Under the pieces are notes generated by a model. The model saw only the letters and a list, made by a program, of their open reading frames with translations, was not told the origin of the DNA and searched no databases. Positions 1,175 through 32,715 of a stretch of DNA of 64,000 bases are shown here, one piece after another. The stretch is from Undaria pinnatifida (Eukaryota; Sar; Phaeophyceae; Laminariales; Alariaceae), in the NCBI GenBank assembly GCA_012845835.1, contig JABAKD010000017.1, positions 4,648,867-4,712,866 on the forward strand. The letters are read 5' to 3'. Both the position numbers and the translations under genes were made by a program. Within the stretch, counting starts at the first letter, position 1. The number at the start of each line of letters is the position of its first letter.

Positions 1175-1393
1175 CTCTCTCGCAGCACAGCTCTGTCGTC
1201 CAACCGTTTTCCCCGCACACTTTAGTTTCGTAGTCTGCCACCGCGGTGTACTTAGGAGGGCACTGTTTGCTGGAGCAGACCTTCTCGCAGCACTGGCCCT
1301 TGGTCCACTGGAAGTTCTCGCATTCCACCGAGTCGGGGTTGAGGATGGATTTGTACCCCTTCGGGCATTGTTTGGAGTCGCACGTTACCGCGT
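1175..1393 (-). CDS. Cassette exon M1 (type A-like, last cassette seen)
   Basis: 219 nt, phase 1-1, acceptor TCTCAG|AC, donor G|GTGAGA, so at least one further exon must follow. It reads C-DSKQ-C-PKGYKSILNPDSVE, CENFQWTKGQCC, CSSKQCPPKYTAVADYETKV, CGENGWTTELCC. Ten cysteines. It mixes type A features with the QWTKGQ of type D. Its downstream intron flank resembles that of type C exons. Confidence 0.88.
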
Positions 1394-2180
1394 CTGAGAT
1401 AAAATTGGAGGATCGTGGGAAACAACAAAGAAGGGGATGTTCGAGGCTGGTTCAAGCATACATCGTCTCAGGGTCTGACCCGGGCGAAATCGATAGAGAG
1501 CGAAAGGGTAAAAAACGGAACTTGACCGGATTTTGAATTGCTATTTCGGGCTAAAGTTGGTGTCGAAAAACATTAAAACAATGGCAGAATTAATATGTCG
1601 TCGATAACGTTTCGTTTCAGAATAACTCCTCCATTCCAAAGGGTTTTCCACTGTTGGTATCATTTTCCAGGACGGTTGCCTTGTTTAAGGTCTTCTGAAA
1701 AATTACAAGATATTCCATATCATGTGGTGGTGTCCTTTTATTGGCTGAAACATGTACATCGTTTTCGTTTTCACCTCGGTGATTTGATTTGATCTCTTTG
1801 GAGATCGAATTGCCAAATTTTTTTTTTTGAACGCCCCATAACATCACCCTAATATATTTGAAAAACGTGTTTTCTTCCATTTTTCACTAAACTGACACCG
1901 TTGCGAAGTATTGCAAGTTAGGATTGCATAAAACACGGACCAAGTATTTACATAGTACGGGCTTATATCATTGTATCGATCGGCACTAAGGACTACTGCC
2001 CGATCCCTGCGCCTCCACGGCAGACGGGCCATATTCGGGATATACCATATCGACAGATTTATCATGGAGTGCGTAAATTCCATGCGGCAACCTCGTCGCA
2101 CCGCAACAGCATTTTCCATATTTAATGCGTTGCGGCGAGGGTCCACGCGAATCATACCAGTCAAGACGAATGCGCTACTC

Positions 2181-2545
2181 TTTGCGACGCATCCAAGACA
2201 TGCCTCTGGTACATGCCCAAACGAATCAAAGACGTAATAAGTTATCCGCCCCTAAACCAAAGGTTGGGCGATGCGCTCGTTGGCGAGACGGGCGATTATC
2301 GGTGTCACCCTCCCGTCCAAACGAAAGGCGAGTAAGATAAAGCTGAGAATGTACGCGAGCCCTTAGCGATGCATCCAAGACATTTCCGCCACATGCACCA
2401 AACGAATCGAAGACGTAAAACATTATCCGCCCCTAAACCAAAGGTTGGGAGTTGCGCTCGTTGTCGAGACGGGCAATTCTCGGTGTCACCCTCCCGACGA
2501 AACGATGGGCGGGTAAGATAAAGCCGAGAATGTACGCGAGCACTT
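2181..2545 (+). repeat. Two-copy tandem repeat, period 181 bp
   Basis: The CCCTAAACCAAAGGTTGGG block occurs at 2250 and 2431, and the flanking sequence (ATCCAAGACAT, ACGAATC, GGTGTCACCCTCCCG, AAGATAAAG) matches in order. Copies are diverged. The short open frames over it are not credible genes. Confidence 0.8.
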
Positions 2546-3124
2546 GAGGGTGTTGCTCCAGAACTCGAATATCGGTATATAAACGAAGGAGGAGCTTTCT
2601 TCATTGTTCATTGGGGCGTTCTCGTCGTACAATGGCGACAACGAGAATAGCGCGAGCGAACATCGAGCCAAGTCGCGCCTTTCCGCAAAATCCGACAAGG
2701 CTAGGCCCGTTTAAGGTCACCGCAGGGAGTGCCGGCGCGTGATCTCCGGACCGCGCACGCTGCGATAGGCCCGGGGAGCCCAGGGGAATTCGAGCATCGC
2801 AGAGGGTTCGCACGAGGGCGAGTTTCCGGCTTGAGGTCCGATTTCCACAAACGCCAGCTTGCGAGGCTGATATGCAAATGGCTTAGGTTTAGCTTTCCAA
2901 AGCTATGTCGCATTTTTCAAGAAATATTTTGGACACATTTCTTGCCATCACCAGGAACTTTCTGTCTTTGACTTGTGTGCCTCGGCGTGAGAAGGAAGGT
3001 AGTGGCACAACACTCACCCGCGGCTAGAAGCAGCCACGCATGGGTAGGCAGCAGCACCGGGACAGCAGCGGGCAGCAGCAGGCAGCAAAGTCAATATCAA
3101 CGCTCAACTAACACCAGGTTATAA

Positions 3125-3260
3125 AGTACTTCGACCTGGAGTGGCCGAGTAGTCGCGGTTCCCTCTGGAGCACTTCGCCCTGAAACAGCTGAGTACTCGC
3201 GAGTGCTCCGGCGTAATTCGACCTGAAATGACTTGAGTACTCGCGATTGGGTAGTCGCGA
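3125..3260 (+). repeat. Minisatellite, three copies of about 45 bp
   Basis: CTTCGACCTG-type starts at about 3128, 3173 and 3217 are each followed by GAGTACTCGCG or GAGTAGTCGCG. Diverged copies inside an intron. Confidence 0.65.
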
Positions 3261-3984
3261 ATCACAAGAGGGCCACGTGCTTTCGATTTTCAAATCTAAA
3301 TCTAAATATGTACGCATATGTTGTGGATTTTCACACATACCTCGCACTGGTGAGGCCGTAGGTCTAGTCAGCGCAAAACAAGCCGTTAAATCCATCTTAA
3401 CTTTTTGACGGTTGGTACACAGTGCACAGAACTTGTATTATCGCACAAGAGTCCGTAGGCGACGATGAGGGCAGAGCCCCTATTATATATTGGAAATAAG
3501 GAAGCGCTCGAGAGCAATAAGAACGGCATACTGGTATTCACAGGTGCACAAGTAACGTAGGAGTTTTCGACGTGAAACAAGTGTAGAACGTAATCGAATT
3601 CTCGAGTAAGAGCTCCGACCTCGTTCTCTTTGCCAATATAACACAAAACAAAGAGATACGTACACGCATAGGTGTAAAGCGGCGCGCAGTTCAGGCGCCT
3701 TTAAAAACTTTTGCTGTTTCTTTTCTTCCCGCCAACAACAAAAAAGTGAAAACAACGTACAAATAGAACTTGGAGCCATTGATGGATCTAGCAACATTAC
3801 TTTGATTGTTGACACCCTCCAAGACGTGACCTGCGACTTCGACGGCTGTTGTGTGCCCTCACTCTCCCCAACAGTACCCGAAATATGGATAATTGTTGCA
3901 GCACCGGTGACGGAGTGGAATTGTTCTCGTGCACATGCGGTAAGCCAAGCATCCAAAGGGGGTCTAGAAGGAGTAAGCTCTCAC

Positions 3985-4203
3985 GTTTGTCGCAGCACAG
4001 CTCTTCCGTCCACCCGTTGTCGCCGCACACAATCGTGTCAGAGTCTGGTTTCGCGGAATAGTGGGCAGGGCACATTTTGCTAGAGCAGACCTTCTCACAG
4101 CACTCGCTCTCGGTCCACTGGAAGTTCGTGCACTGCGTCGCGCTGGGTTCCCCGATGTATTTGGATCCCCTCGGGCATTTTTTAGCGGCGCAGGTTACCG
4201 GGT
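3985..4203 (-). CDS. Cassette exon M2 (type C)
   Basis: 219 nt, phase 1-1, acceptor TCTCAG|AC, donor AAAC|GTGAGA, which gives a His junction codon with M1. It reads DPVTC-AAKK-C-PRGSKYIGEPSATQ, TESECC, CSSKMCPAHYSAKPDSDTIV, CGDNGWTEELCC. Ten cysteines. Close paralogue of M16, with matching intron flanks; the intron before it contains the conserved element at about 4312-4337. Confidence 0.88.
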
Positions 4204-5073: not shown

Positions 5074-5200
5074 TAGCAGCAGTGGGCAGCAGCAGTGGGC
5101 AGCAGCAGGAAGCAGTAGCAAGCAAGGATACAGCCAGCAGCATCTATAGCCTCCAGCAGCCATCATCATCCACTAGCAACGACCAAGGAACAGGTAGCAG
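5074..5200 (+). repeat. CAG-rich interrupted microsatellite
   Basis: AGCAGCAGTGGGCAGCAGCA and related interrupted CAG runs in the M3-M2 intron. A similar cluster occurs at 22383-22690. Confidence 0.7.
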
Positions 5201-6753: not shown

Positions 6754-6972
6754 CTCTGGTGCAGCACTGCTCTTTCTTGCACACGCCTCCCTCGCACACT
6801 GTAGTATCAGCGTCCTCCACCGGGGTGTGGGTTGAAGGGCAACCGAAGCTAGAGCAGACCTTTTCGCAGCACTGGTTCTTGGTCCACGCGAAGTTCGTAC
6901 ACTCCACCTCACCGGGGTTGGTAATATATTGGTATCCAGTTGGGCAGTCTTGAGATCGGCAGGTTACCGCGT
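6754..6972 (-). CDS. Cassette exon M3 (type B)
   Basis: 219 nt, phase 1-1, acceptor TCTCAG|AC, donor G|GTCAGA. PTGYQY, AWTKNQCC, CSSFGC, VEDADTTV and C-EGGV-C-KKEQ-CC. 11 cysteines. It lies 626 bp from M4, the same spacing as M9/M10 and close to M14/M15. Confidence 0.9.
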
Positions 6973-7379: not shown

Positions 7380-7598
7380 CTCTGTTGCAGCACAGCTCTT
7401 TTGTCCAGCCGCCTTCTCCGCACACTTTGGCTTCGGAGTCTGCCACCGCTGTGTACTTAGGAGGACACTGTTTGCTAGAGCAAACCTTCTCGCAGCACTG
7501 ACCCGTGTTCCACTCGAAGTTGTCGCATTCCATCGCGTCGGGGTTGAGGATGGATTTGTATCCCCTCGGACATTTTCTAGAGTCGCAGGTTACCGGGT
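7380..7598 (-). CDS. Cassette exon M4 (type A)
   Basis: 219 nt, phase 1-1, acceptor TCTCAG|AC, donor G|GTAAGA. Starts DPVTC-DSRK-C; FEWNTGQCC and VADSEAKV are private variants. Ten cysteines. It belongs to the shortest, two-exon (A then B) unit, which looks like the ancestral layout of the amplified block. Confidence 0.9.
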
Positions 7599-8813
7599 CT
7601 GAGACGAAAAGCGGAGATGATGTTGAACAACGGGAGACGGGATTGCAGAGACTGGTTCAAGCACAATGCGTCCGGTGTTCTGACCCTTTCTAAATCATGG
7701 GTACGGTATCGACGCCATTGCCACAACTTGTGAGTGTCAAACTTCACACTTCCGACAGGATAAAACCAAGACGTGAATTTTGTTCTGATTCGTTAGATTG
7801 GGTGACGTGAACGATGAAAGCATCGGACTAGAAATTGTGGGCGGAAGACAGGCGTTGAATAGATGTTTTGGCGTTGTCGTGTATCGTGTAAAGTTCTATT
7901 GATTTCTGAGCGACAGACGTATCTAGTTGAACGGCTGCCTCCCCCTACCGTTGCATTGGGCACAGAGAGGAGATGGATTATTTTCCGCCAGCACCCATCG
8001 GCATCTACCAGTGGTTGAGGCTCAGTGCGATGTTGCCGGCGGCTGTTGGGGAGGTTTGCGAAATTGTGGACGGCACGAAGGCCCAATCATACTTCGGTTA
8101 AACCCCTAAAACTGCTTTCGTACAACTGTTGGTTGCACACGCCGACAACTTCAAGGTAACAGGAAGCCATGATAGGCCGTCCCCACACCGTGGACATTTT
8201 TCGTCAGAAAATGGGTCGTGACCGATGTCGAGGACAAGTGACGAGCCTGTGCTGTTGTTTCGGTTGGTCGCGACACCCTAGATACCTGTCCAGTCAGGTT
8301 AGAAATAAATAGTAAAATACTAGGTATAAGGCTGTCGGGAGATTCCGCCTTAGTTTGTGTTTCAGATTCTATTTCTGACAGAGAAGCTAAAGATTTCGCT
8401 CGGAAATTATGGAGGCCTAAATGACAGCAATTGCGCAGATACTGTCCTTCAAGGTGTTACCGCAAACGTAGCACGTTTCAACAAAAAGGATGATGTCATC
8501 GTTCGAAATTTCGGGTAGAGTTCGTATAGCACGTGTGTAAAATCATTTGTGTCTAACGTTCGTAAACAGGGTCATTTGTCGGTGCGAAAAAATCGGTGCG
8601 GCTGAATGAAAAGGATTTGCAATACGTTCCTTAGATTGTTCTAACATTAACAGTTGTTACATGGTACGGTGACCGTATTGTTTTGCCGGCAGCCTAACCA
8701 ACATGACCCAACCTATGGCTAACGTCGGTAGCTTGGGCATGAGGTTAGGGAAAAACGCTCGCGCATGCGACAACCAAGTACGATGAGACGTGCTCGTAGG
8801 AACAAGCTCTGAC

Positions 8814-9032
8814 CTCTGGTGCAGCACTGTTCTTTCTTGCACACGCCTCCCTCGCACACTGTAGTATCAGCGTCCTCCACCGGGGTGTGGGTTGAAGGGC
8901 AACCGAAGCTAGAGCAGACCTTTTCGCAGCACTGGTTCTTGGTCCACGCGAAGTTCGTACACTCCACCTCACCGGGGTTGGTGATATATTGGTATCCAGT
9001 TGGGCAGTCTTGAGATCGGCAGGTTACCGCGT
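8814..9032 (-). CDS. Cassette exon M5 (type B, downstream B of its unit)
   Basis: 219 nt, phase 1-1, acceptor TCTCAG|AC, donor G|GTCAGA. It has AWTKNQCC rather than AWTRNQCC, and VEDADTTV, both shared with M3. 11 cysteines. M5 and M3 are thus close copies although in different units. Confidence 0.9.
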
Positions 9033-9346
9033 CTGAGATTGACAGGCGGATCGTGAAATACGAAAAAAAACGAATGTTGGTGTCTGGTTCTCAAAGAACG
9101 CGTCCTAGCCCCTCAGATACCGACGAATTCATGAGTCCAGTGTTGTCGACGCCATCGCCACATTGAAAGTATCGTGCAACCGCTACGAACAGATCGGGCA
9201 AGCCGAATGCTGAATACGTCAAAACCAAAACTACAGACAGTCGTCGCCATGCTTCTTTGTAGTTTAAGTAAGGGGTTAGAAAACAACGCTCGCGCGTGCG
9301 ATAAGCCAAGTACATAGGAGAGGTGCTCGTAGGAACAAGCTCTGAC

Positions 9347-9565
9347 CTCTAGTGCAGCACTGCTCTTTCTTGCACACGCCTCCCTCGCACACTGTAGTAT
9401 CAGCGCCCTCCACCGGGGTGTGGGTTGAAGGGCATTCGAAGCTAGAGCAGACCTTTTCGCAGCACTGGTTCCTTGTCCACGCGAAGTTCGTACACTCTAC
9501 CTCACCGGGGTTGGTGATATATTTGTATCCCATTGGGCAGTCTTGAGATCGGCAGGTTACCGCGT
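9347..9565 (-). CDS. Cassette exon M6 (type B, upstream B of its unit)
   Basis: 219 nt, phase 1-1, acceptor TCTCAG|AC. The donor is G|GTCAGA, unlike the A|GTAAGA of its counterparts M9 and M12. It has CSSFEC and PMGYKY like them but VEGADTTV like M8 and M11, so its 3' part may have been copied from a downstream B exon. 11 cysteines. Confidence 0.9.
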
Positions 9566-9686
9566 CTGAGATTGACAGTCGGATCGTGAAAAACAACGAA
9601 GAAACGAATGTTGGTGTCTGGTTCCGGCAGAAAGCGTCCCAACCTCAGAAACCAACGAGTCAGGAGTCCAGTGTCGTCGACGCGAT

Positions 9687-9691
<5 letters not shown>

Positions 9692-9720
<29 letters not shown>
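9692..9720 (+). repeat. (TA)n microsatellite
   Basis: Lies within the conserved intron element upstream of M6. The homologous tracts at 12292-12309, 14884-14900 and 16943-16958 differ in length. Confidence 0.95.
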
Positions 9721-9723
<3 letters not shown>

Positions 9724-9985
9724 GTATCATGCTAACCGCTACGAGCAGATAGCGCAAGTCGAATGCCGAACACGCCAAAACCAAAACCGCAGACGGTCGT
9801 CATCATGCTTCGTTGTACAATGTCGCAAAAAGTCCCGCGAAAAACCAAAGACAATAGTACTGTTACCGTACTAGTTGAACGGTCGCAGTGCTGTGTCTCC
9901 AGACAAAATACCCGGACACTCAAGCCTTGTGCACGGTGGTAGAGGACACTATTGGTGTCTGTCGGCATCGTCTGGAAATTCTTAC

Positions 9986-10204
9986 CTCTGTTGCAGCATA
10001 GCTCTTTCGTCCAGCCGCCTTCCCCGCACACTTTGGTTTCGGAGTCTGCCACCGCGGTGTACTTAAGAGGACACTTCTTGCTAGAGCAGACCTTCTCGCA
10101 GCACTGATCCGTGTTCCACTCGAAGTTGTCGCATTCCATCGCGTCGGGGTTGAGGATGGATTTGTACCCCCTCGGACATTTTTTAGAATCGCAGGTTACC
10201 GCGT
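9986..10204 (-). CDS. Cassette exon M7 (type A)
   Basis: 219 nt, phase 1-1, acceptor TCTCAG|AC, donor G|GTAAGA. C-DSKK-C start, CSSKKCPLKY second half. Ten cysteines. It shares the PLKY variant with M10 and M13 but lacks their Gly substitution, so it is the oldest of the three full-unit A exons. Confidence 0.9.
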
Positions 10205-11417
10205 CTGAGACAAAAGCGGAGGTCATGAGAAGCAACGGGGGACGGGATGACAGACACTGGTTCAAGCAGAGTGCTTGTTGGGTTTCGACACCTTCGAAAC
10301 CATGGGTGCTGTATCTATGCCGTTGCCACATCTGGTGAGTGTCATACTTCAAACTTTCAACAGGTTGAAATATTGAAGACGTGAATTTTGTTATGATTCG
10401 TTAGGTTGGGCGACGTGAATGCCGAGAAAAACAGACTAAATGTAGGTACAAGACAGGCGTTGAATAGCCGTTTGGCGTGGTCAAGTACTGTGTAAAGTTC
10501 TATTGGTTTCTGACCAGTAACAGACGTGTTTAGCTGAACGGCTGCCTCCTTACTGTTGCATTGGCCACAGAGAGGAGATGAAAGCGTTTCCGTCAGAACC
10601 CAGCGGCACCTCGCAGTGGCTGCGGCTCGATGGGCTTCTGCTTGGGGCTGTTGTTGGCGTTTGAGAAATCGGGGGGGCTCGAAGGCCCAATCATACTTCG
10701 GTTGAACCTTGAATTCAACCGTTAGTTGTACACGCCGACTACTTCAAGGTAACAGGAAGCCATGATAGGCCGTCCCCACATCGTGGACACTCTTCGTCAG
10801 GAAATTGATCATGGCCGATGACGAGGAAAGGTGACGAGACTGTGATGCTGTTTCGGTTGGTCTCGACACCCTAGATACCTGTCCAGTCAGGTGCGAAATA
10901 AAATAAATAAATAATGGGTATAAAGCTGTCGGAAGATTCCGCCTTTGTTTGTGTTGTTTCAGATTGTATTCCTAACAGATAATAAAACGATTTCGTTCTG
11001 AATATATGGAGGCCTTAGCGACAGCAATATCGCAGCTATTGTTTTGTAGGTGTTACCGCAAATATTTGCAGGTATCAACGAAAAGGGTGACAACGAACTT
11101 CTTCGTTCGACATTTCGGGTTGAGTTCGTGTAGCACGTGCGTGAAATCATGTGGGTCTAACTTTCGTGAACGGAGTCATTTGTCGGTGTGAAAAAATTGA
11201 TGCGGCTGAATTTAACGGCTTGACAATGCGCTCTTTTTCGATTGTTCGAATATTTACAGATTTTTAGTACAGTGACGGTATTGTGTTGCCGGCAACCTAA
11301 CCAACATGGCCCAACCTATGGCTACCGTCGGTAGCTTGGGCATGAGGTTAGGGAAGCACGCTCGCGCATGCGACAAACCAAGTACGATGAGACGTGCTCG
11401 TAGGAACAAGCTCTGAC

Positions 11418-11636
11418 CTCTAGTGCAGCACTGCTCTTTCTTGCACACGCCTCCCTCGCACACTGTAGTATCAGCGCCCTCCACCGGGGTGTGGGTTGAA
11501 GGGCAACCGAAGCTAGAGCAGACCTTTTCGCAGCACTGGTTCCTGGTCCACGCGAAGTTTGTACACTCCACCTCACCGGGGTTGGTGATATATTGGTATC
11601 CAGTTGGGCAGTCTTGAGATCGGCAGGTTACCGCGT
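11418..11636 (-). CDS. Cassette exon M8 (type B, downstream B of its unit)
   Basis: 219 nt, phase 1-1, acceptor TCTCAG|AC, donor G|GTCAGA. It encodes the same product as M11 (VEGADTTV, CSSFGC). 11 cysteines. It lies exactly 2,590 bp from M11. Confidence 0.9.
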
Positions 11637-11948
11637 CTGAGATTGACAGGCGGATCGTGAAATACGAAAAAACGAATGTTGGTGTCTGGTTCTCAAAGAA
11701 CGCGTCCTAGCCCCTCAGATACCGACGAATTCATGAGTCCAGTGTTGTCGACGCGATTGCCACATTGAAAGCATCGTGCAACCGCTACGAACAGATCGGG
11801 CAAGCCGAATGCTGAATACGTCAAAACCAAAACTACAGACAGTCGTCGCCATGCTTCTTTGTAGTTTAAGTAAGGGGTTAGAAAACAACGCTCGCGCGTG
11901 CGATAAGCCAAGTACATAGGAGAGGTGCTCGTAGGAACAAGCTCTTAC

Positions 11949-12167
11949 TTCTGGTGCAGCACTGCTCTTTCTTGCACACGCCTCCCTCGCACACAGTAGT
12001 ACCAGCGTCCTCCACCGGGGTGTGGGTTGAAGGGCACTCGAAGCTAGAGCAGACCTTTTCGCAGCACTGGTTCCTGGTCCACGCGAAGTTCGTACACTCC
12101 ACCTCACCGGGGTTGGTGATATATTTGTATCCCATTGGGCAGTCTTGAGATCGGCAGGTTACCGCGT
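11949..12167 (-). CDS. Cassette exon M9 (type B, upstream B of its unit)
   Basis: 219 nt, phase 1-1, acceptor TCTCAG|AC, donor A|GTAAGA as in M12 (Asn junction). The protein sequence matches M12, including CSSFEC and VEDAGTTV. The intron just upstream holds a (TA)n tract at 12292-12309 of different length from those in the sister units. Confidence 0.9.
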
Positions 12168-12574
12168 CTGAGATTGACAGTCAGATCGTGAAAAACAACG
12201 AAGAAACGAATGTTGGTGTCTGGTTCCGGCAGAAAGCGTCCCAACCTCAGATACCGTCAGTCAGGAGTCCAGTGCCGTCGACGCGATTGCCATATATATA
12301 TATATATATTAAGTATCATGCTAACCGCTGCGAGCAGATAGCGCAAGTCGAATGCCGAACACGCCAAAACCAAAACCGCAGACGGTCGTCATCATGCTTC
12401 GTTGTACAATGTCGCAAAAAATCCCGCGAAAAACCAAAGACAATAGTACTGTTACCGTACTAGTTGAACGGTCGCAGTGCTGTGTCTCCAGACAAAATAC
12501 CCGGACACTCAAGCCTTGTGCACGGTGGTAGAGGACACTATTGGTGTCTGTCGTCATCGTCTTGAAATTCTTAC

Positions 12575-12793
12575 CTCTGTTGCAGCATAGCTCTTTCGTC
12601 CAGCCGCCTTCCCCGCACACTTTGGTTTCGGAGTCTGCCACCGCGGTGTACTTAAGAGGACACTTCTTGCTAGAGCAGACCTTCTCGCAGCACTGATCCG
12701 TGTTCCACTCGAAGTTGTCGCATTCCATCGCGTCGGGGTTGAGGATGGATTTGTACCCCCTCGGACATTTTTTAGAACCGCAGGTTACCGCGT
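12575..12793 (-). CDS. Cassette exon M10 (type A)
   Basis: 219 nt, phase 1-1, acceptor TCTCAG|AC, donor G|GTAAGA. Carries the same C-GSKK-C start as M13, which shows that these two units share a more recent ancestor than M7, where the start is C-DSKK-C. Ten cysteines, Trp in both halves. Confidence 0.9.
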
Positions 12794-14007
12794 CTGAGAC
12801 GAAAAGCCGAGACCACGAGGAACAACGGGAGACGGGATGACAGAGACTGGTTCAAGCAGAGTGCTTGTTGGGTTTCGACACCTTCGAAACCATGGGTGCT
12901 GTATCTATGCCGTTGCCACATCTGGTGAGTGTCATACTTCAAACTTTCAACAGGTTGAAATATTGAAGACGTGACTATGGTTATGATTCGTTAGGTTGGG
13001 CGACGTGAATGCCGAAAAAAACAGACTAAATGTAGGTACAAGACAGGCGTTGAATAGCCGTTTGGCGTGGTCAAGTACTGTGTAAAGTTCTATTGGTTTC
13101 TGACCAGTAACAGACGTGTTTAGCTGAACGGCTGCCTCCTTACTGTTGCATTGGCCACAGAGAGGAGATGAAAGCGTTTCCGTCAGAACCCAGCGGCACC
13201 TCGCAGTGGCTGCGGCTCGATGGGCTTCTGCTTGGGGCTGTTGTTGGCGTTTGAGAAATCGGGGGGGCTCGAAGGCCCAATCATACTTCGGTTGAACCTT
13301 GAATTCAACCGTTAGTTGTACACGCCGACTACTTCAAGGTAACAGGAAGCCATGATAGGCCGTCCCCACATCGTGGACACTCTTCGTCAGGAAATTGATC
13401 ATGGCCGATGACGAGGAAAGGTGACGAGACTGTGATGCTGTTTCGGTTGGTCTCGACACCCTAGATACCTGTCCAGTCAGGTGCGAAATAAAATAAATAA
13501 ATAATGGGTATAAAGCTGTCGGAAGATTCCGCCTTTGTTTGTGTTGTTTCAGATTGTATTCCTAACAGATAATAAAACGATTTCGTTCTGAATATATGGA
13601 GGCCTTAGCGACAGCAATATCGCAGCTATTGTTTTGTAGGTGTTACCGCAAAAATTTGCAGGTATCAACGAAAAGGGTGACAACGAACTTCTTCGTTCGA
13701 CATTTCGGGTTGAGTTCGTGTAGCACGTGCGTGAAATCATGTGGGTCTAACTTTCGTAAACGGAGTCATTTGTCGGTGTGAAAAAATCGATGCGGCTGAA
13801 TTTAACGGCTTGACAATGCGCTCTTTTTCGATTGTTCGAATATTTACAGATTTTTAGTACAGTGACGGTATTGTGTTGCCGGCAACCTAACCAACATGGC
13901 CCAACCTATGGCTAACGTCGGTAGCTTGGGCATGAGGTTAGGGAAGCACGCTCGCGCATGCGACAAACCAAGTACGATGAGACGTGCTCGTAGGAACAAG
14001 CTCTGAC

Positions 14008-14226
14008 CTCTAGTGCAGCACTGCTCTTTCTTGCACACGCCTCCCTCGCACACTGTAGTATCAGCGCCCTCCACCGGGGTGTGGGTTGAAGGGCAACCGA
14101 AGCTAGAGCAGACCTTTTCGCAGCACTGGTTCCTGGTCCACGCGAAGTTCGTACACTCCACCTCACCGGGGTTGGTGATATATTGGTATCCAGTTGGGCA
14201 GTCTTGAGATCGGCAGGTTACCGCGT
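14008..14226 (-). CDS. Cassette exon M11 (type B, downstream B of its unit)
   Basis: 219 nt, phase 1-1, acceptor TCTCAG|AC, donor G|GTCAGA. It reads PTGYQYITNPGEVE, CSSFGCPSTHTPVEGADTTV (Gly where M5 and M3 have Asp). 11 cysteines. It lies 533 bp from M12, the spacing seen for the B pair in every full unit. Confidence 0.9.
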
Positions 14227-14540
14227 CTGAGATTGACAGGCGGATCGTGAAATACGAAAAAAAACGAATGTTGGTGTCTGGTTCTCAAAGAACGCGTCCT
14301 AGCCCCTCAGATACCGACGAATTCATGAGTCCAGTGTTGTCGACGCGATTGCCACATTGAAAGCATCGTGCAACCGCTACGAACAGATCGGGCAAGCCGA
14401 ATGCTGAATACGTCAAAACCAAAACTACAGACAGTCGTCGCCATGCTTCTTTGTAGTTTAAGTAAGGGGTTAGAAAACAACGCTCGCGCGTGCGATAAGC
14501 CAAGTACAAAGGAGAGGTGCTCGTAGGAACAAGCTCTTAC

Positions 14541-14759
14541 TTCTGGTGCAGCACTGCTCTTTCTTGCACACGCCTCCCTCGCACACAGTAGTACCAGCGT
14601 CCTCCACCGGGGTGTGGGTTGAAGGGCACTCGAAGCTAGAGCAGACCTTTTCGCAGCACTGGTTCCTGGTCCACGCGAAGTTCGTACACTCCACCTCACC
14701 GGGGTTGGTGATATATTTGTATCCCATTGGGCAGTCTTGAGATCGGCAGGTTACCGCGT
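14541..14759 (-). CDS. Cassette exon M12 (type B, upstream B of its unit)
   Basis: 219 nt, phase 1-1, acceptor TCTCAG|AC, donor AGA|GTAAGA preceded by A, giving an Asn junction codon and a stronger donor than most B exons. It reads PMGYKYITNPGEVE, CSSFECPSTHTPVEDAGTTV. 11 cysteines. The upstream B of each three-exon unit carries CSSFEC and PMGYKY; the downstream B carries CSSFGC and a Tyr-Gln-Tyr form. Confidence 0.9.
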
Positions 14760-15164
14760 CTGAGATTGACAGTCGGATCGTGAAAAACAACGAAGAAACG
14801 AATGTTGGTGTCTGGTTCCGGCAGAAAGCGTCCCAACCTCAGATACCGTCAGTCAGGAGTCCAGTGTCGTCGACGCGATTGCCATATATATATATATATT
14901 AAGTATCATGCTAACCGCTACGAGCAGATAGCGCAAGTCGAATGCCGAACACGCCAAAACCAAAACCGCAGACGGTCGTCATCATGCTTCGTTGTACAAT
15001 GTCGCAAAAAATCCCGCGAAAAACCAAAGACAATAGTACTGTTACCGTACTAGTTGAACGGTCGCAGTGCTGTGTCTCCAGACAAAATACCCGGACACTC
15101 AAGCCTTGTGCACGGTGGTAGAGGACACTATTGGTGTCTGTCGGCATCGTCTGGAAATTCTTAC

Positions 15165-15383
15165 CTCTGTTGCAGCATAGCTCTTTCGTCCAGCCGCCTT
15201 CCCCGCACACTTTGGTTTCGGAGTCTGCCACCGCGGTGTACTTAAGAGGACACTTCTTGCTAGAGCAGACCTTCTCGCAGCACTGATCCGTGTTCCACTC
15301 GAAGTTGTCGCATTCCATCGCGTCGGGGTTGAGGATGGATTTGTACCCCCTCGGACATTTTTTAGAACCGCAGGTTACCGCGT
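15165..15383 (-). CDS. Cassette exon M13 (type A)
   Basis: 219 nt, phase 1-1, acceptor TCTCAG|AC, donor G|GTAAGA. Differs from M15 in C-GSKK-C at the start (Gly for Asp) and in CSSKKCPLKY. Ten cysteines. Nearly identical to M10, one repeat unit (2,590 bp) lower. Confidence 0.9.
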
Positions 15384-16597: not shown

Positions 16598-16816
16598 CTC
16601 TAGTGCAGCACTGCTCTTTCTTGCACACGCCTCCCTCGCACACTGTAGTATCAGCGTCCTCCACCGGGGTGTGGGTTGAAGGGCAACTGAAGCTAGAGCA
16701 GACCTTTTCGCAGCACTGGTTCCTGGTCCACGCGAAGTTCGTACACTCCACCTCACCGGGGTTGGTGATATATTTGTAACCAATTGGGCAGTCTTGAGAT
16801 CGGCAGGTTACCGCGT
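16598..16816 (-). CDS. Cassette exon M14 (type B)
   Basis: 219 nt, phase 1-1, acceptor ATCACAG|AC, donor G|GTCAGA (weak at +3). Type B signature: C-RSQD-C-PIGYKYITNPGEVE-C, CTNFAWTRNQCC, CSSFSCPSTHTPVEDADTTV, then C-EGGV-C-KKEQ-CC with Cys in the Trp position, so 11 cysteines. The serine in CSSFSC separates it from the other B copies. It is the only B exon in its unit and may be a fusion of the two B types found in full units. Confidence 0.9.
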
Positions 16817-17225: not shown

Positions 17226-17444
17226 CTCTGTTGCAGCATAGCTCTTTCGTCCAGCCGCCTTCCCCGCACACTTTGGTTTCGGAGTCTACCACCGCGGTGT
17301 ACTTAGGAGGACACTGTTTGCTAGAGCAGACCTTCTCGCAGCACTGATCCGTGTTCCACTCGAAGTTGTCGCATTCCATCGCGTCGGGGTTGAGGATGGA
17401 TTTGTACCCCCTCGGACATTTTTTAGAATCGCAGGTTACCGCGT
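17226..17444 (-). CDS. Cassette exon M15 (type A)
   Basis: 219 nt, phase 1-1, acceptor TCTCAG|AC, donor G|GTAAGA. Type A signature: C-DSKK-C-PRGYKSILNPDAME-C, CDNFEWNTDQCC, CSSKQCPPKYTAVVDSETKV, CGEGGWTKELCC. The VVD replaces VAD of its relatives. Ten cysteines. It heads the last, incomplete repeat unit, in which only one type B exon (M14) follows. Confidence 0.9.
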
Positions 17445-19053: not shown

Positions 19054-19272
19054 TTTTATCGCAGCACAGCTCTTCCGTCCACCCGTTTTCGCCGCACACA
19101 ATCGTGTCAGAGTCTGGTTTCGCCGAATAGTGGGCAGGGCACATTTTGCTAGAGCAGACCTTCTCACAGCACTGACTCTCGGTCCACTGGAAGTTCGTGC
19201 ACTGCGTCGCGCTGGGTTCCCCGATGTATCTGGATCCCCTTGGGCATTTTTGAGCGGCGCAGGTTACTGCGT
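19054..19272 (-). CDS. Cassette exon M16 (type C)
   Basis: 219 nt, phase 1-1, acceptor ATCGCAG|AC, donor AAAA|GTGAGA, which gives an Asn junction codon with M15. Type C signature: C-AAQK-C-PRGSRYIGEPSATQ-C, CTNFQWTESQCC, CSSKMCPAHYSAKPDSDTIV. Ten cysteines, Trp in both halves. M2, 15 kb away, is its close paralogue and shares both intron flanks, so type C exons bracket the amplified A/B block. Confidence 0.88.
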
Positions 19273-21184: not shown

Positions 21185-21403
21185 CTCTGTCACAGCACAG
21201 ATCTGTCGACCACCCGTTTTCCCCGCACACTTTAGTATCAGAGTCTGCCACCGCGGTATATTTAGGGGGGCACTCTTTGCTGGAGCAAACCTTCTCGCAG
21301 CATTCGCGTTTGTTCCACATGAAGTCCGTGCACTGCCTCGCGCTGGGGTTAGCGATGGATTTGTATCCAACCGGGCAGTCTTCGGAGTCGCAGGTTACCG
21401 CCC
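21185..21403 (-). CDS. Cassette exon M17 (type D)
   Basis: 219 nt, phase 1-1, acceptor TCTCAG|GG, donor G|GTAAGA. It starts GAVTC rather than DAVTC because the first two exon bases are GG; the junction codon with M18 is Gly. Other differences from M18: PVGY, PSARQ, FMWNKRECC and CSSKEC. Ten cysteines, Trp in both halves. The conserved upstream intron element lies at about 21492-21512. Confidence 0.88.
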
Positions 21404-24379: not shown

Positions 24380-24598
24380 CTCTGACGCAGCACAGATCCG
24401 TAGACCACCCGTCTTCCCCGCACACTTTGGTATCAGAGTCTGCCACCGCGGTATACTTGGGGGGGCACTTTTTGCTGGAGCAGACCTTCTCGCAGCATTG
24501 GCCCTTGTTCCACTGAAAGTCGGTGCACTTCGTCGCGCTGGGGTTAGCGATGGATTTGTATCCCGCCGGGCAGTCTTCGGAGTCGCAGGTTACCGCGT
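24380..24598 (-). CDS. Cassette exon M18 (type D)
   Basis: 219 nt, phase 1-1. Acceptor ATTCCAG|AC differs from the common TCTCAG; donor G|GTAAGA is strong. Signature: C-DSED-C-PAGYKSIANPSATK-C, then CTDFQWNKGQCC, then CSSKKCPPKYTAVADSD. Ten cysteines, Trp in both halves. Nearest relative is M17. Its downstream intron (about 23.88-24.37 kb) is partly homologous to the intron following M17 (about 20.36-21.18 kb), so the two arose by duplication of an exon plus flanking intron. Confidence 0.88.
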
Positions 24599-25100
24599 CT
24601 GGAATCAGAAGCCGGGGTCGTGGGAAGCAACGAAAACCGAACGTTACACAAGCTGGTTGACTCACAACGAAACATTAGGTTCGGACGCTGGGAAGTCTTC
24701 GGGTGCAGCGCCGACACGATGGCCACACGGTGAGTAGTATCCCTGGTGACAGCTATCCACGGAGTAAATGCAAGACTTGGTAATCCTACGGTTAGATCGG
24801 TTTGGAACAGTGAATATGTCAAACATAAACTTTTGTCGGCAGGAGACGGGTGCCATCAAGATTGTGCCGTATTTGGCCTCCCGTGGTTCTAGGATACAAG
24901 CGGAATGCCAGGAACGAACGCATGACTTCCCTTGAGTTTCCAAACGACAAGAGGATTATCACGGACGCTCCCCGTGTAATCTCCAGAGGAACGGGGACGC
25001 CCAAGCACGTATTCCCGACGTACGACGTCATCCCACAGTTGGATTGCAGCAGAACGTTCCTGAGCTCCTAATACATGAGGAGCTCAGTATCCCACCCGAA

Positions 25101-25616
25101 ACATGAGTTCCGAGGCATTCGTTCGCGCAACCCAACAAAAGGTTCTATGCCCCCTGATCTCAAGCATAGCACGAGGAAAATATTCGGACACTCTGCCGGT
25201 AGTTCCTTACGCGATGAGCTCAACCGGCCAGAAACCGTTTCGCTGAAAGAGTGCGAGTCCTGTTGTGAGATGACTGGAATGTAGGTCTTGGTATTTGCTA
25301 CCCTTAACTTCCACATTGCTTTCAGTTTGCTCTTGTTTCGGGTTTCTTTATGGTAGGAACATGAGTTCCGAGGCATTCGTTCGCGCAACCCAACAAAAGG
25401 TTCTATGCCCCCTGATCTCAAGCATAGCACGAGGAAAATATTCGGACACTCTGCCGGTAGTTCCTTACGCGATGAGCTCAACCGGCCAGAAACCGTTTCG
25501 CTGAAAGAGTGCGAGCCCTGTTGTGAGATGACTGGAATGTAGGTCTTGGTATTTGCTACCCTTAACGTCCACATTGCTTTCGGTTTTCTCTTGTTTCGGG
25601 TTTCTTTATGGTAGAA
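25101..25616 (+). repeat. Two-copy tandem duplication, period 258 bp
   Basis: ACATGAGTTCCGAGGCATTC starts at 25101 and 25359. The copies differ at only a few bases (for example GAGTCC/GAGCCC, TTAACTTCC/TTAACGTCC). A 197-residue open frame across both (minus, 25068-25661) simply translates the repeat twice. The GAGGCATTCGTTCGCG block is also found in gamma-type elements. Confidence 0.92.
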
Positions 25617-26065: not shown

Positions 26066-26281
26066 CTTTAACGCAGCACAGATCTGTCGACCAACTGTCC
26101 CCGCACACTTTCGTGTCAGCGTCTGCCACCGCGGCAAAGCCAGTCGGGCATTGTTTGCTAGAGCAAACCTTCTCGCAGCACTGGTCCTCGGTCCACAAGA
26201 AGTTGTTGCACTGCACCTTGCTGGGATCGCCGATGTATTTGAATCCCCACGGGCATGGTTTAGCGGCGCAGGTTACCGGCG
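26066..26281 (-). CDS. Cassette exon M19 (216 nt, one codon shorter)
   Basis: Acceptor CTCAG|CG, donor AAAG|GTAGGA, phase 1-1 kept because a whole codon is missing. The loss is in the second half, which reads C-GDS-W-STDL-CC (C-x3-W) in place of C-x4-W. The first half is APVTC-AAKP-C-PWGFKYI and resembles type C; the second half (CPTGFAAVADADTKV) resembles type D. It therefore looks like an intermediate or a recombinant. Ten cysteines are kept. The first 24-25 nt of this exon, with its upstream intron, are duplicated about 380 bp further upstream. Confidence 0.85.
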
Positions 26282-26945
26282 CTGAGACGAAAAGTGGGGA
26301 TCATGAGAAAATGACAAACGGCATGTTAGAGGTTGGTTGAAGCAGTAAGTGTCCCAGGTTTGACCCTGCTTACTTCATGAGGCCAATACTGAGACGAATG
26401 TCACCTAGTGGGTATCATACGCACTCCTACGCACGGGAAAGCTACCTGACGTGGTAGTTCTTCCAACCTTATTGTATTGGTATCATACGCACTCCTACGC
26501 ACAGGAAAGCTACCTGACGTGGTGGTTCTTTCAACCTTATCGTATTTCGGCAGGAGGTAAACGTGGTCTTGGCGTAATCGTTTGGTGTTTGGCATGAGAC
26601 AAGGCGTCGAAGGGAACGTTGCATTGTAGCACGACCGGTTTAGCGGCGCAGGTTACCGGCGCTGAGACGAAAAGTGGGGATCATGAGAAAATGACAAACG
26701 GCATGTTAGAGGTTGGTTGAAGCAGTAAGCGTCCCAGGCTTTGACCCTACTTACTTCATGAGGCCAATGCTGAGACGAATGTCACCTGGTGGGTATCATA
26801 CGCACTCCTACGCACAGGAAAGCTACCTGACGTAGTAGTTCTTCCGACCTTATTGTATTTCGGCAGGAGGTAAACGTGGTCTTGGACTAATAGTTTGGTG
26901 TTTGGAATGAGACAAGGCGTCGTCGGGAACGTTGCATCATATCAC
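26259..26945 (+). repeat. 380-bp tandem duplication copying the edge of exon M19
   Basis: Sequence from 26259 (last part of the exon on this strand, acceptor and upstream intron) recurs from 26639. The second copy holds only about the first 25 nt of the exon plus its acceptor, so it is a truncated, probably non-functional exon edge. The lower copy also has an internal ~63-bp duplication (GTATCATACGCACTCCTACG at about 26411 and 26480). Confidence 0.85.
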
Positions 26946-27472: not shown

Positions 27473-27691
27473 CTTTATCACAGCACCGGGCTGCCGTGCA
27501 ACCTTCACCACGACACTTGATGGTGCTGGCATCGTTCTTCAAGGTGGAGTGATTAGGACAGGCGAAGCTGGAGCAGACCTCCTCGCAGCACTGAGAGGCC
27601 TTCCACTCGCCGTCCATACACTCCATTTGGTCGGCGTTGTCAATCAAGGCGTATCCATCCGAGCATGTCCCGCTGTTGCAGTAGACCGGGG
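27473..27691 (-). CDS. Cassette exon M20
   Basis: 219 nt, phase 1-1, acceptor ATATCAG|CC, donor AAAG|GTAAGA. The first half is APVYC-NSGT-C-SDGYALI with CMDGEW; the second half is EVCSSFAC with C-RGEG-C-TAAR-CC, where Cys replaces Trp, making 11 cysteines. The linker is CCEEVC. It joins to M21 through an Ala codon rather than the usual Asp. Next cassette toward the 3' end is M19, about 1.2 kb away. The upstream intron flank keeps the conserved element at about 27808-27832. Confidence 0.85.
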
Positions 27692-27839
27692 CTGATATCA
27701 ATAGTCGCGATAGGAAGGAACCGACGGAAAAACGGAGGGTTAACGGCTGGCTTCAGCAGGACCCACCCCAATCCTTAAGTCCGGTAACCCACTTCCTGAC
27801 GTGCGGTATCGACACGACTACCCAATGGTGGGTATCGCA

Positions 27840-29702: not shown

Positions 29703-30090
29703 CGTTTGGTGAGATACTACGTAGATCTTCTCAAGCAAGTACCACAAAAAAACCAAGAAAAATTACAGCAAATTAAAAAAAACTCGTCGTTCGGAAGTGT
29801 GACAAGGGCATTTAAAAAACAGTTGCATCGCATCAAGTTCCGAGTCTAACTCGCATGAAAGGCACGGGTACCTGATGGGCAAAACGTTTAATGCGGTTGT
29901 CTTCCACTAGCCAGGGCTCCGTGTTTTACCTGTCTCGCAAGCCCTAAGACGGAAACTAGGACAGCGACGGGCGTTTTGGTGCCCTCGTCCTCAAACTTGG
30001 TACGCGTACTGTAATCGCCTTCCGTGGGCAGGTTAGCATATGATAGGGATTATCTTACAGGGGAAGTTACGGAGCATTCGCGAGGAGACC

Positions 30091-30338
30091 CGTGCTACGA
30101 TAGAGGTGCACCACTTTTTGTCTGAGGTTCCTCAATTTTGGGAGCTTAAGATTACTCTCCACCCAAAATCGATCTGGAAAAAAATTAAAACTTCTACCGG
30201 ATGAAAGCTCCCATGGCTAAGGTACACAACGAGAATCACTCCAAAAAAAATGTTCTTTTCGACGATTTTGATTGAATGAAGGAGCCCCGTCTTTCAGACA
30301 AGGAAAACGACAAAAAGTGCTTCCTCTATCGCAGCACG
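30091..30338 (+). mobile_element. Delta-type MITE copy next to exon M21
   Basis: Left CGTGCTACGATAGAGGTGCA, right end inverted CGTGCTGCGATAGAGGAAGC. Internal sequence follows the 29460 copy block by block. Its right end lies about 30 bp from the M21 donor at 30369. Confidence 0.75.
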
Positions 30339-30368
30339 CGTCAGGATCCAAGTGGGAACATGTATTAC

Positions 30369-30587
30369 CTTTGTCGCAGCACAGGTCTGTAGACCACCCG
30401 TTATCTCCACACACGATGGAGGCAGACTCAGCTTTCGGGGAAAAGCGCGAAGGGCAGTCCTGGCTAGAACAGACCCTCTGGCAGCACTGGCTCTTGGTCC
30501 ACTCGCCACTCATGCATTCCATTTCGGCCGGGTTTTTAATCGGAATGTAGCCATCTGTGCACTTGTGCTCGCTGCAGTACACCGGGT
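30369..30587 (-). CDS. Cassette exon M21
   Basis: 219 nt, phase 1-1, acceptor TCTCAG|AC, donor G|GTAATA. The first half starts DPVYC-SEHK-C-TDGYIPI and uses the ECMSGEW variant; the second half starts RVCSSQDC and ends CGDNGW-STDL-CC. Both halves keep Trp, so there are 10 cysteines. The usual CCEKVC linker is CCQRVC. With M20 it shares VYC, a Ser/Thr-Asp-Gly-Tyr motif and ECM.GEW, and forms a subtype distinct from downstream cassettes. A delta-type MITE ends within about 40 bp of its donor on the intron side. Confidence 0.85.
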
Positions 30588-30884
30588 CTGAGATTAACAG
30601 TCGAGGTCGTACAACAAGACACGCACCGTTTAGGCGTTGACGGTCGTTGGTTAAAGAGACGGGAGCGTGTCGGCGACGGCGAGTATCCAAACTGAGAATG
30701 TTTTCGCGGAAGTACTCGAAATGGCGACACTTTTTTAGCCGTGGTGACACGCAACTGGAAGGCTGCTGATACAAGGGAGTGTTCCCTCTGACAAAGCCTT
30801 AAAATCCCTCCCTATACCAAATCCACGAAAAAATCTCCCCCAATAGGGTTTTCAGTAGTGAAGACGTAGGCTTCCGACGCCTGC

Positions 30885-31227
30885 TACAATAGAGGTGCAC
30901 CAACATTATTCTAGTACTACTCCCCACTTTAGAAGGAGGTTGAGACATGCCCTTCTTGACCCAAAAACTGATTTGGAGGAAAAATATTATACCTGCTTTA
31001 TCGCGGATGAAATATTTAACGCATAGGGTACACGACGAGAATCACGCAAACAAGTGGGGGGTATTTCCGACGATTTTGGGTAAAGTAGAGCCCCCGAACC
31101 CCTCCCTATACTAAATCCAAGTGATTTTCTCCCCAAAAACGTTCCAGTTGTCAACGGGTTAAGGTGAGCCTCCGTCATTCAGAAACAATTTTGGGCTAAA
31201 AGTGCTATCTCTACCTTAGCCCGCCTC
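30885..31227 (+). mobile_element. Delta-type MITE, long form
   Basis: Left CTACAATAGAGGTGCACCA, right GCTATCTCTACCTTAGC. It has an extra centre beginning GAGCCCCCGAACCCCTCC and followed by TATACTAAATCCAAGTGATT. The same centre is in the 62622-62945 copy and, as a nested fragment, at about 43007-43090. Confidence 0.7.
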
Positions 31228-31385
31228 TTTCGGCTGTAGCGCCTGTGAATCCGAACAACAATGGAACAGCTGGGGTATCGAGAGCGTCTGGGGTAGTGTC
31301 GGCTGCCACAAGAGCGCCAGCACGCGCGGCTGGTACAAGCCAGCGCAATACATAACGAGATTTGTGCTGCACATCCGAGACAGGT

Positions 31386-31653
31386 CGAGGCTACAGGTGG
31401 GGGGTCACTTTCTCTCTCTCATGTTTTTGCAGTGGGTAGGGGGCCGCTCGCTCGATTGATCCCCCCGTTCTGTTTGCGATCTAAAGCTTTTGGTGTGATA
31501 GTTTCAATACCCAACATGAATCCACTAAAATGGAAGGGTAAACTACGCTGCGCCGAAACTAAAACGCCTGGTAATGTGCCCTTAGGCGTGAGGTACAGAG
31601 ACGCTCGCGCGAGAGAATCTGAAAAAAAAAACCCACCCTACCGTACCCTCGGT
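31386..31653 (+). mobile_element. Beta-type MITE copy
   Basis: Left GAGGCTACAGGTGGGGGGTCAC, right end inverted GAGGGTACGGTAGGGTGGG. Internal inverted pair is GCTCGCTCGATTG and GACGCTCGCGCGAGAG. Lies in the M22-M21 intron. Confidence 0.65.
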
Positions 31654-32383
31654 TGAACAAGGAAAAAAACTTAACACTTGGCTATGGCAGAGGGTATTTT
31701 TTTGTTCTTCTTTTTGTATTCCTCAGATGACGAGGTCCATACTAGTCATAGGTGCCATAGGTGCCCCACCCTCTCCTAAAAAGGTATTTTGAGTCAAACA
31801 AAAGTGCGTACGGGTGGACTTGACGACGTCCCAGAGCTGCAAAAAAGAAACATTGACACTGTGCGTCGACCCAGAATGACATTCCCCGATGATTGTGCGT
31901 TAGGTAATCCCATCACCCACAGAGGCCGAAACAAAATAACGAGACGTGGTAACTCCATCGTCGTACCGCGCGCTCCTTGCGCTTGTTCACGGGTGTCCTG
32001 GTTCTCCACATCCCATGTTTTTCTTCGATTTTATGGCAATGATTGCAAATGGGTCGTCGTCAAGTTTTCAAGCTCAAGCTTGGAGATCGTATTCCACACC
32101 GGAGTCGTCCGGCAGTAGGGGCTCGCCGAAGAATTTTGAGCTCTAACTAACAACATGAGAAGATCAGCAGATCGCCCGGAATACGACTTCGAAGGCATTC
32201 GCTCGCGTAATCCAACGAACCTCTTTTCCGAACCGGTGGTTCTTCACTTGCTGAGCCCAACTACCCAGATAGCGAGAGGGATGTGTCTGCCCCGAAACGT
32301 GCGGCCCCTTCCATGGGATAAGTAATCTTCCGATGGCAACTGTAAACATATACTGTTTTGGACGAGTCGTTTCGAGGGCTCAC

Positions 32384-32715
32384 GTTTTACGCAGCACAGG
32401 TCCCGCGTGCACTCGTCGTTAGGGCACACGATCCTGTGGTAGTGTGGCACCGCGGAGTGGTGAGGCGGGCAGTCGAAGCTGGAGCAGACCTTCTCGCAAC
32501 ACTGGTCCTTGGTGCACACGCCGTTGTTACACGGCACGTCGGAGGCTAGGTGGATCATTTTGTACCCGTAGGTGCAGTCGATGGAGTCGCAGCACATCTC
32601 CTGCGTGGGATGCCCGTGGTTGCAGTCACCGGGGTTGTTGGTCAGCCGCGCACAACATTCAGCCATTCGAGTAGGATAATGATATATTGAGCGATCGATC
32701 CCATGCAAATCAAGT
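32384..32715 (-). CDS. Cassette exon M22 (divergent, most N-terminal; 5' boundary uncertain)
   Basis: Two full half-modules are present: C-DSID-C with GYKMI, then CNNGV-C-TKDQ-CC, then CCEKVCSSFDC and CPNDE-C-TRDL-CC. In both halves the usual Trp is Cys, giving 12 cysteines. The donor is AAAC|GTGAGC at 32384. Upstream, still in frame, lies a partial extra half (C-NHGH-P-TQEM-CC), so the exon is probably longer than other cassettes. The frame is open up to a stop at 32727-32729. Possible acceptors are TAG ending at 32716 (phase 2) or CAG ending at 32601 (phase 0, giving a 217-nt cassette). Neither matches the phase-1 donor of exon 1, so an additional small exon or the alternative exon-1 donor is implied. 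Confidence 0.65.

What the first reader, a model, noticed from the sequence alone, without database searches (positions are those of the whole stretch)
1175..32715. Twenty-two interchangeable 73-residue cysteine cassettes, one per exon
All 22 exons encode the same strict pattern, two times C-x4-C-x14-C-x4-[W/C]-x4-C-C. Twenty exons are exactly 219 nt and one (M19) is 216 nt; M22 is the exception. M21 to M1 are phase 1-1. A modular extracellular protein built from identical symmetric exons is a good candidate for an undescribed repeat family, and I cannot match the pattern to a named domain.
Basis: partly seen in the sequence, partly recalled or inferred. Interest (0 to 1): 0.9.

Follow-up and report, generated by a model that had tools for sequence, protein, structure and literature searches.

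The report
Huge brown-algal secreted cysteine-repeat gene
A brown seaweed carries one very large gene that appears to encode a secreted protein made of about thirty similar, disulfide-type modules, each on its own exon; the module matches no described domain family well and is probably a building block of the seaweed's extracellular matrix.

Summary
In detail: 22 minus-strand exons with the stated pattern (43 strict half-modules, none in 60 shuffles) and, for M21-M1, phase 1-1 splice sites. They are the first 22 of 30 module exons of one gene that runs out of the window. With a signal-peptide exon (34915-35032) and a less certain second exon (33456-33508), the model has 32 exons over 49.8 kb, all 31 junctions GT/AG and in frame: 2,212 residues, 313 cysteines, no membrane segment, a stop just after the last module. 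M22 is a regular first module (phase 0 acceptor, 217 nt), as in paralogues. The genome is a brown alga's; relatives in Ectocarpus and Pylaiella are unnamed proteins. No Pfam, NCBIfam or PDB match is significant; AlphaFold gives a confident small fold without a PDB match. One relative carries CBM_1, another a weak galactose-binding-like domain, so a polysaccharide-associated matrix protein is my best guess (inferred). The array grew by duplication of symmetric exons, with a young three-exon unit in the middle. Sub-threshold leads: oomycete PcF, CCP modules, CPL1-like.

The parts
34915..35032 (-). exon 1: start codon and signal peptide (MVRFSSVIAAWVMLGIAAAG...), donor GGCG|GTGAGT, phase 1
   Evidence: signal-peptide exons of three paralogues at C23:4165125, 4152582, 4141009
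33456..33508 (-). exon 2 (53 nt, basic peptide, phase 1 to 0); predicted, the least certain exon
   Evidence: comparable 50-nt candidate in three near-identical paralogues
32384..32600 (-). M22, first module exon, 217 nt, phase 0 to 1, C/C halves
30369..30587 (-). module exon M21 (219 nt, phase 1-1)
27473..27691 (-). module exon M20
26066..26281 (-). module exon M19 (216 nt)
24380..24598 (-). module exon M18
21185..21403 (-). module exon M17
19054..19272 (-). module exon M16
17226..17444 (-). module exon M15
16598..16816 (-). module exon M14
15165..15383 (-). module exon M13
14541..14759 (-). module exon M12
14008..14226 (-). module exon M11
12575..12793 (-). module exon M10
11949..12167 (-). 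module exon M9
11418..11636 (-). module exon M8
9986..10204 (-). module exon M7
9347..9565 (-). module exon M6 (AlphaFold model covers 9352-9563)
8814..9032 (-). module exon M5
7380..7598 (-). module exon M4
6754..6972 (-). module exon M3
3985..4203 (-). module exon M2
1175..1393 (-). module exon M1; eight further module exons follow below the window start (to C23:4634055)
7599..15383 (-). three tandem copies of a three-exon unit (M13-M11, M10-M8, M7-M5; 2590, 2589, 2606 nt)

Best explanation
One large gene of a brown alga encodes a secreted, roughly 240-kDa protein: signal peptide, short basic segment, then 30 module exons (29 with two units, one with a single unit) of a small disulfide-type unit (C-x4-C-x14-C-x4-[C/W]-x4-CC), ending just after the last module. 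Each module is one symmetric exon, so copies can be added or lost without breaking the frame; the gene grew by repeated duplication, most recently of a three-exon unit in the middle. The protein most likely works as a long multivalent scaffold in the extracellular matrix or cell wall: cysteine modules strung in a row, binding polysaccharide and/or cross-linked to each other. Shown by sequence: the exons, splice phases, in-frame model, a signal-peptide-like start, constraint on exons, brown-algal family. Inferred: secretion, disulfides, matrix role, polysaccharide binding.
For: In-frame model, 32 exons, GT/AG at all 31 junctions, 2,212 residues, 313 Cys, highest 19-residue hydropathy after residue 40 only 0.5. 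GT exactly 7 nt after the CC in 61 of 72 modules or fragments ending in CC, over nine genomic stretches. Three paralogues have a signal-peptide exon; paralogues have acidic or Ser/Thr/Pro-rich linkers. Constraint: the two nearest unit copies differ at 1 of 657 exon but 22 of 1930 intron sites (Poisson P 0.005); median dN/dS 0.46 over 267 module pairs with dS<1.2. Four ENA proteins differ at 1 of 73 exon residues each from their match here. Named relatives in Ectocarpus and Pylaiella, signal-peptide-like starts by eye in four of the five (the fifth is partial). P0064 carries CBM_1 (E 1.7e-10); P0060 a C-terminal domain weakly like F5_F8_type_C_2 (E 0.036). Module model pLDDT 92.6.
Against: No transcript or protein evidence. 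Exon 2 rests on phase, a good donor (score 8.0) and a weak acceptor (score 0.1); 12 phase-compatible candidates exist, several overlapping, and its counterpart in paralogues is seen only in three near-identical tandem copies. The partner domains are in relatives, not in this gene; P0060's C-terminal part is modelled with low confidence, and its two best Foldseek hits are phage baseplate chains (E 0.005 and 0.009, none at 0.001 or below). dN/dS in single pairs reaches 1.19, so some modules may be diversifying or neutral. The exon/intron contrast with unit M7-M5 is inflated because its last intron is of different ancestry.
Confidence: 0.55

Rival explanations
1. A soluble recognition (immune-type) protein: symmetric exons are shuffled or alternatively spliced to vary a binding repertoire, as proposed for the LRR exons of brown-algal ROCO genes.
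For: One repeat per symmetric exon and recent duplication, as in ROCO LRR exons (72 bp, phase 2; PMC11378527, section 11 read); variable positions between cysteines; local family of paralogues.
Against: Median dN/dS below 1; the youngest modules are identical in protein (M8=M11, M9=M12, M10=M13), the opposite of diversification; no membrane segment in the model.
Confidence: 0.2
2. A precursor cut into small secreted cysteine-rich peptides (antimicrobial or effector-like), possibly of the same stock as the oomycete PcF/SCR family.
For: K or R ends each of the 22 modules in the window; PcF (PDB 2bic) is the best hit of profile A5, E 0.034 over positions 1-39, and shares C-x4-C-x14-C ... CC-x3-C; oomycetes and brown algae are both stramenopiles (recalled).
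Against: Never significant: E 0.12, 0.33 and 0.069 with three other profiles, where CCP chains or an insulin A chain rank above it. Pfam PcF is hit by 1 of 38 units at E 0.0038, 1 of 8 modules at 1.2, none of 14 or 16. Two of the seven module ends beyond the window that precede another module have no K or R before the junction (AQ, EE), nor have several paralogues. Foldseek did not list 2bic.
Confidence: 0.13
3. A divergent CCP/sushi (complement control) module protein.
For: W-type units match factor H CCP chains over about positions 6-30 (best E 0.025); the only Foldseek hit of the module is CD55 (E 9.4).
Against: Not significant; covers about 25 of 42 positions; Pfam matches none of 16 W-type units; the model has short helices whereas CCP is all-beta (recalled); the C/C units lack the W.
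Confidence: 0.05
4. Assembly artefact or dead repeat array.
For: Near-identical tandem units can be misassembled.
Against: Unit copies differ in introns (22 of 1930 sites between the closest two) and exons are more conserved than introns; the spliced model has no internal stop; ENA proteins match three modules of the window gene.
Confidence: 0.04

Closest known systems
Unnamed proteins of Ectocarpus sp., E. fasciculatus and Pylaiella littoralis (P0057, P0059, P0061-P0063)
   Same: Same module, several copies, signal-peptide-like start in four of five: true relatives
   Different: 258-320 residues with few modules; C in place of W; no function or family name attached
Brown-algal ROCO genes with one LRR per exon (PMC11378527; Zambounis 2012, cited there, not held and not read)
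   Same: One repeat per symmetric exon, amplification by exon duplication
   Different: Different domain (LRR), 72-bp phase 2 exons, ROC-COR GTPases; no sequence relation expected
PcF/SCR family of oomycetes (PF09461)
   Same: Spacing C-x4-C-x14-C ... CC-x3-C, small secreted cysteine-rich unit
   Different: Match below significance; single small domain; no middle Cys; 12 instead of 9 residues before CC
CCP/sushi module (PF00084)
   Same: C..GY...C...W core in the W-type units; strings of modules
   Different: No Pfam match, about half the length, CC pair, short helices in the model
CPL1-like (PF21671)
   Same: Weak Pfam hits: 2 of 8 modules (E 0.017), 1 of 38 units (0.025), 2 of 14 (0.013)
   Different: All below the curated cut-off; only about 25 residues aligned in the one alignment shown
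EsV-1-7 cysteine repeat (PF19114, IMM family)
   Same: Cysteine repeat expanded in brown algae, starts C-x4-C (recalled)
   Different: No match of the module to PF19114; 150 EsV-1-7 places scored in this genome, none in the array

Membership tests
EsV-1-7 (PF19114) | match to the Pfam model (35 positions) | tested here: not met
   Pfam scan of a nine-module stretch and four single-module ORFs up to E 10 lists no PF19114; genome scan lists none in C23:4.57-4.89 Mb among the 150 scored of 2167 candidates
PcF/SCR (PF09461) | Pfam PcF model above its cut-off | tested here: not met
   1 of 38 units at E 0.0038; 1 of 8 modules at E 1.2; 0 of 14, 0 of 16
PcF/SCR (PF09461) | six cysteines C-x4-C-x14-C-xn-CC-x3-C | tested here: met
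   alignment to the 2bic chain; n is 12 in PcF, 9 here, and the sixth Cys is the first of the next unit
PcF/SCR (PF09461) | same fold and three disulfides | tested here: inconclusive
   Foldseek of the module model lists one PDB chain at E<=10, not 2bic; disulfides not testable
PcF/SCR (PF09461) | small single-domain secreted protein (73 aa for PcF; PMC7327169, passages) | tested here: not met
   2,212 residues, 30 module exons
CCP/sushi (PF00084) | Pfam Sushi match | tested here: not met
   none of 16 W-type units, none in the nine-module stretch
CCP/sushi (PF00084) | C..GY and G.W core | tested here: inconclusive
   complement factor H chains, E 0.025 upwards, positions 6-30
CPL1-like (PF21671) | Pfam match above cut-off (27.4 bits) | tested here: not met
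   best E 0.013-0.025 in 2 of 8, 1 of 38, 2 of 14 members; 15.6 bits where shown
Brown-algal exon-per-repeat genes (works like) | one repeat per symmetric exon | tested here: met
Brown-algal exon-per-repeat genes (works like) | alternative splicing of repeat exons | not testable with these tools
   no transcripts held
Secreted matrix protein | signal peptide and no membrane anchor | tested here: met
   (by hydropathy, no dedicated predictor)
Secreted matrix protein | polysaccharide binding | not testable with these tools
   only partner domains in relatives

The most novel reading that the evidence does not exclude
The module is a new stramenopile domain family in which brown algae rebuilt, independently of animals, the phase 1-1 modular matrix protein, from a small secreted cysteine unit that oomycetes kept as PcF-type effectors; in this gene a C-to-W change in most units (26 of 27 first halves, 14 of 27 second halves) leaves modules with 10, 11 or 12 cysteines, and the spare thiols of the odd ones cross-link neighbouring molecules of the seaweed matrix.
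Probability: 0.15. Interest if true: 0.8.

Novelty: new variant of a known kind. Interest (0 to 1): 0.6.

Why it matters
Proteins made of repeated symmetric phase 1-1 exons are the classic signature of animal matrix evolution (recalled). A brown-algal gene of the same build, with an undescribed domain and a fresh internal expansion, would be an independent case in another complex multicellular lineage, and the introns let the order of duplications be read. It also offers a family for unnamed brown-algal secreted proteins and a candidate for the wall or adhesive chemistry of seaweeds.

Tried and rejected
Rejected: EsV-1-7. NCBIfam (one two-module protein, 0 families). Viral origin: two alignments against viral contigs, 13 and 22 pattern matches, none confirmed. 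Prokaryotic origin: the same against genome contigs, 32 and 18 pattern matches, none confirmed; records very near the own genome may be left out there. PNPOx as a partner domain: P0055 and P0058 carry a second signal-peptide-like start inside, so I read them as fused gene models. Pairwise scoring of candidate second exons gave no pair above the threshold; the candidate was found later by phase and donor. All-against-all ORF comparison of clusters was swamped by interspersed repeats and its output was cut. Literature: nine searches answered; I saw no description of this module in their listings; a search for the spacing found one spider-venom paper (listing only) and one for five module strings found 0 papers. 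That covers only the held open-access library. Seen of papers: PMC11378527 abstract and section 11; PMC7058681 and PMC8307928 passages; PMC7327169 passages and section 7; all others listings only.
Full report
What was claimed and what is there. A regular-expression scan finds them. The strict pattern occurs 43 times in the window against none in 60 dinucleotide shuffles (low-complexity hits filtered out); the forty-fourth half, in M19, is one residue short. Splice sites and lengths agree with the finding for M21-M1. Poly-Cys hits on the plus strand at 49.86 kb are low complexity and not part of it.

The gene is larger than the window. The window is C23:4648867-4712866 of a 511-Mb genome in 68 contigs. 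That search gave 81 module matches (a lower bound), among them a continuation of the array below the window start. I fetched 20 stretches of 10 kb and scanned them with a profile of 106 distinct half-units. The array has 30 module exons, from C23:4681466 down to 4634055; one of them holds a single unit, and the last ends CC-N-Y-H-stop. Upstream, a signal-peptide exon lies at window 34915-35032 with a strong phase 1 donor; three tandem paralogous genes at C23:4.137-4.165 Mb have such an exon too, also phase 1 at the copy I printed.

M22 explained. Of 13 first or lone modules that I printed, 10 (M22 included) have an AG 9, 12 or 15 nt before the first TGC, that is a phase 0 acceptor; I picked these AGs by eye. 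For M22 that gives a 217-nt exon, 32384-32600. A phase 1 to 0 exon is then needed between it and the signal peptide. Twelve candidates, several overlapping, fit the phases. I prefer window 33456-33508: donor score 8.0, acceptor score only 0.1, a basic peptide, and a 50-nt candidate of the same phases with a similar basic peptide in the three paralogues, which are near-identical copies and so not independent. Relatives such as P0057 and P0059 (Ectocarpus) carry a short basic stretch (RRLQ) between signal peptide and first module. This exon remains the least certain part.

Full model. 32 exons join without an internal stop to 6639 nt, 2,212 residues, 313 Cys, 45 Trp, pI 5.0, with no hydrophobic 19-residue segment above 0.5 after residue 40. 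Of 72 modules or fragments ending in CC over nine genomic stretches, 61 have GT exactly 7 nt later; the 11 misses include last exons, fragments and variants. Paralogues put acidic or Ser/Thr/Pro-rich linkers before the module in the same open frame.

Evolution. Grouping the 30 modules at 85% nucleotide identity gives the order A B C D E E F G H G H H G H H G H H G H F G I F G J K L M N: unlike modules at both ends and a young amplified middle. The unit G-H-H recurs three times as blocks of 2590, 2589 and 2606 nt with their introns. The two closest blocks differ at 1 of 657 exon and 22 of 1930 intron positions; at the intron rate 7.5 exon changes would be expected (P 0.005). Against the third block the contrast looks larger (13 of 657 against 212 of 1912), but its last intron has another ancestry (about 80% identity), so I do not lean on it. 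Of 351 pairs of the 27 modules of standard length (3 of other length were dropped), 267 with dS below 1.2 and at least 5 synonymous changes have a median dN/dS of 0.46, range 0.12-1.19: constraint on average, not uniformly strong. Four ENA proteins differ from their best match here at 1 of 73 exon residues each, and at 3 of 73, 5 of 105, 1 of 62 and 23 of 83 residues outside the exon; three match the window gene and one a module on C22.

Which organism, which relatives. Five of the ten hits bear names: Ectocarpus sp., E. fasciculatus (two) and Pylaiella littoralis (two), each 'unnamed protein product'. The EsV-1-7 repeat, recalled as a brown-algal expansion, gives 150 matches over the cut-off among 150 scored (2167 candidates) and none in 14 control genomes. 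So this is a brown alga; the size suggests a kelp, but the species is not given.

What the module is. Pfam (E up to 10) and NCBIfam give nothing significant; the best PDB sequence hit has E 0.076. AlphaFold2 on M6 with 57 sequences gives pLDDT 92.6, pTM 0.71; a second model, of relative P0060, shows much the same secondary structure in four consecutive units. Foldseek finds one PDB chain at E 9.4 (CD55) and the second look finds none; small cysteine-rich folds are easily missed. Three sub-threshold leads remain. PcF (2bic) aligns over nearly the whole unit with E 0.034, 0.12, 0.33 and 0.069 for four profiles, as best hit in the first only, and shares every cysteine spacing but one; Pfam PcF is hit by 1 of 38 units at E 0.0038, by 1 of 8 modules at 1.2, and by none of 14 and 16. 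CCP modules of factor H match the W-type units over about 25 positions, best E 0.025. Pfam CPL1-like is hit by 2 of 8, 1 of 38 and 2 of 14 at E 0.013-0.025. PMC7327169 (passages) calls PcF/SCR an oomycete-specific family and PcF a protein with six conserved cysteines. I file the module under none of these.

How it probably works. P0064 joins the module to CBM_1 (E 1.7e-10). P0060 joins four units to a C-terminal domain with a weak F5_F8_type_C_2 match (E 0.036); Foldseek of its low-confidence model lists two phage baseplate chains first, then enzymes and several CBM35, CBM61, CBM27 and similar sandwiches, none at E 0.001 or below. Together with a signal peptide, no anchor and a long string of cysteine modules, a multivalent matrix scaffold associated with wall polysaccharide is the most economical reading. 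In this gene the fourth cysteine is Trp in 26 of 27 first halves and 14 of 27 second halves, so two-unit modules carry 10, 11 or 12 cysteines; how the odd ones pair cannot be told here. The recognition-repertoire rival fits the exon design seen in ROCO genes, but the youngest modules are identical in protein, which argues against diversification. The precursor rival has a basic residue at the end of all 22 window modules, but not of all modules beyond the window nor of several paralogues.

Limits. No transcripts, no proteomics, no coordinates of the model, no genome-wide profile count; family size is a lower bound. On rereading the calls I mended several numbers and added hits that speak against my reading; none moved the odds.

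Noticed in passing
G000:C23:4136200-4165125 (L025-L028): Three near-identical tandem paralogous genes about 12 kb apart, each with signal-peptide exon and 4-5 modules.
   Followed up: partly
window 45083-45470: Hairpin-like element, 110-nt inverted arms 87% complementary; similar translated sequence recurs in several fetched stretches on both strands, MITE-like.
   Followed up: no
window 26257-26361 and 26637-26741: The 5' edge of exon M19 with its upstream intron is duplicated at 98% inside the intron: a partial exon copy.
   Followed up: no
window 25100-25615: Two tandem 258-nt copies at 98% in an intron, in an open frame of 243 codons without Pfam match at E 0.1.
   Followed up: no
window 41166-42355: Long simple-repeat open frames; the 40-44 kb bin has strong GC skew (-0.27).
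   Followed up: no
G000, many contigs: EsV-1-7 repeats: 2167 first-look candidates, all 150 scored over the cut-off, a very large expansion.
   Followed up: no
P0055, P0058: Pyridoxamine oxidase domain fused to modules, with a second signal-peptide-like start inside: probably fused gene models.
   Followed up: partly
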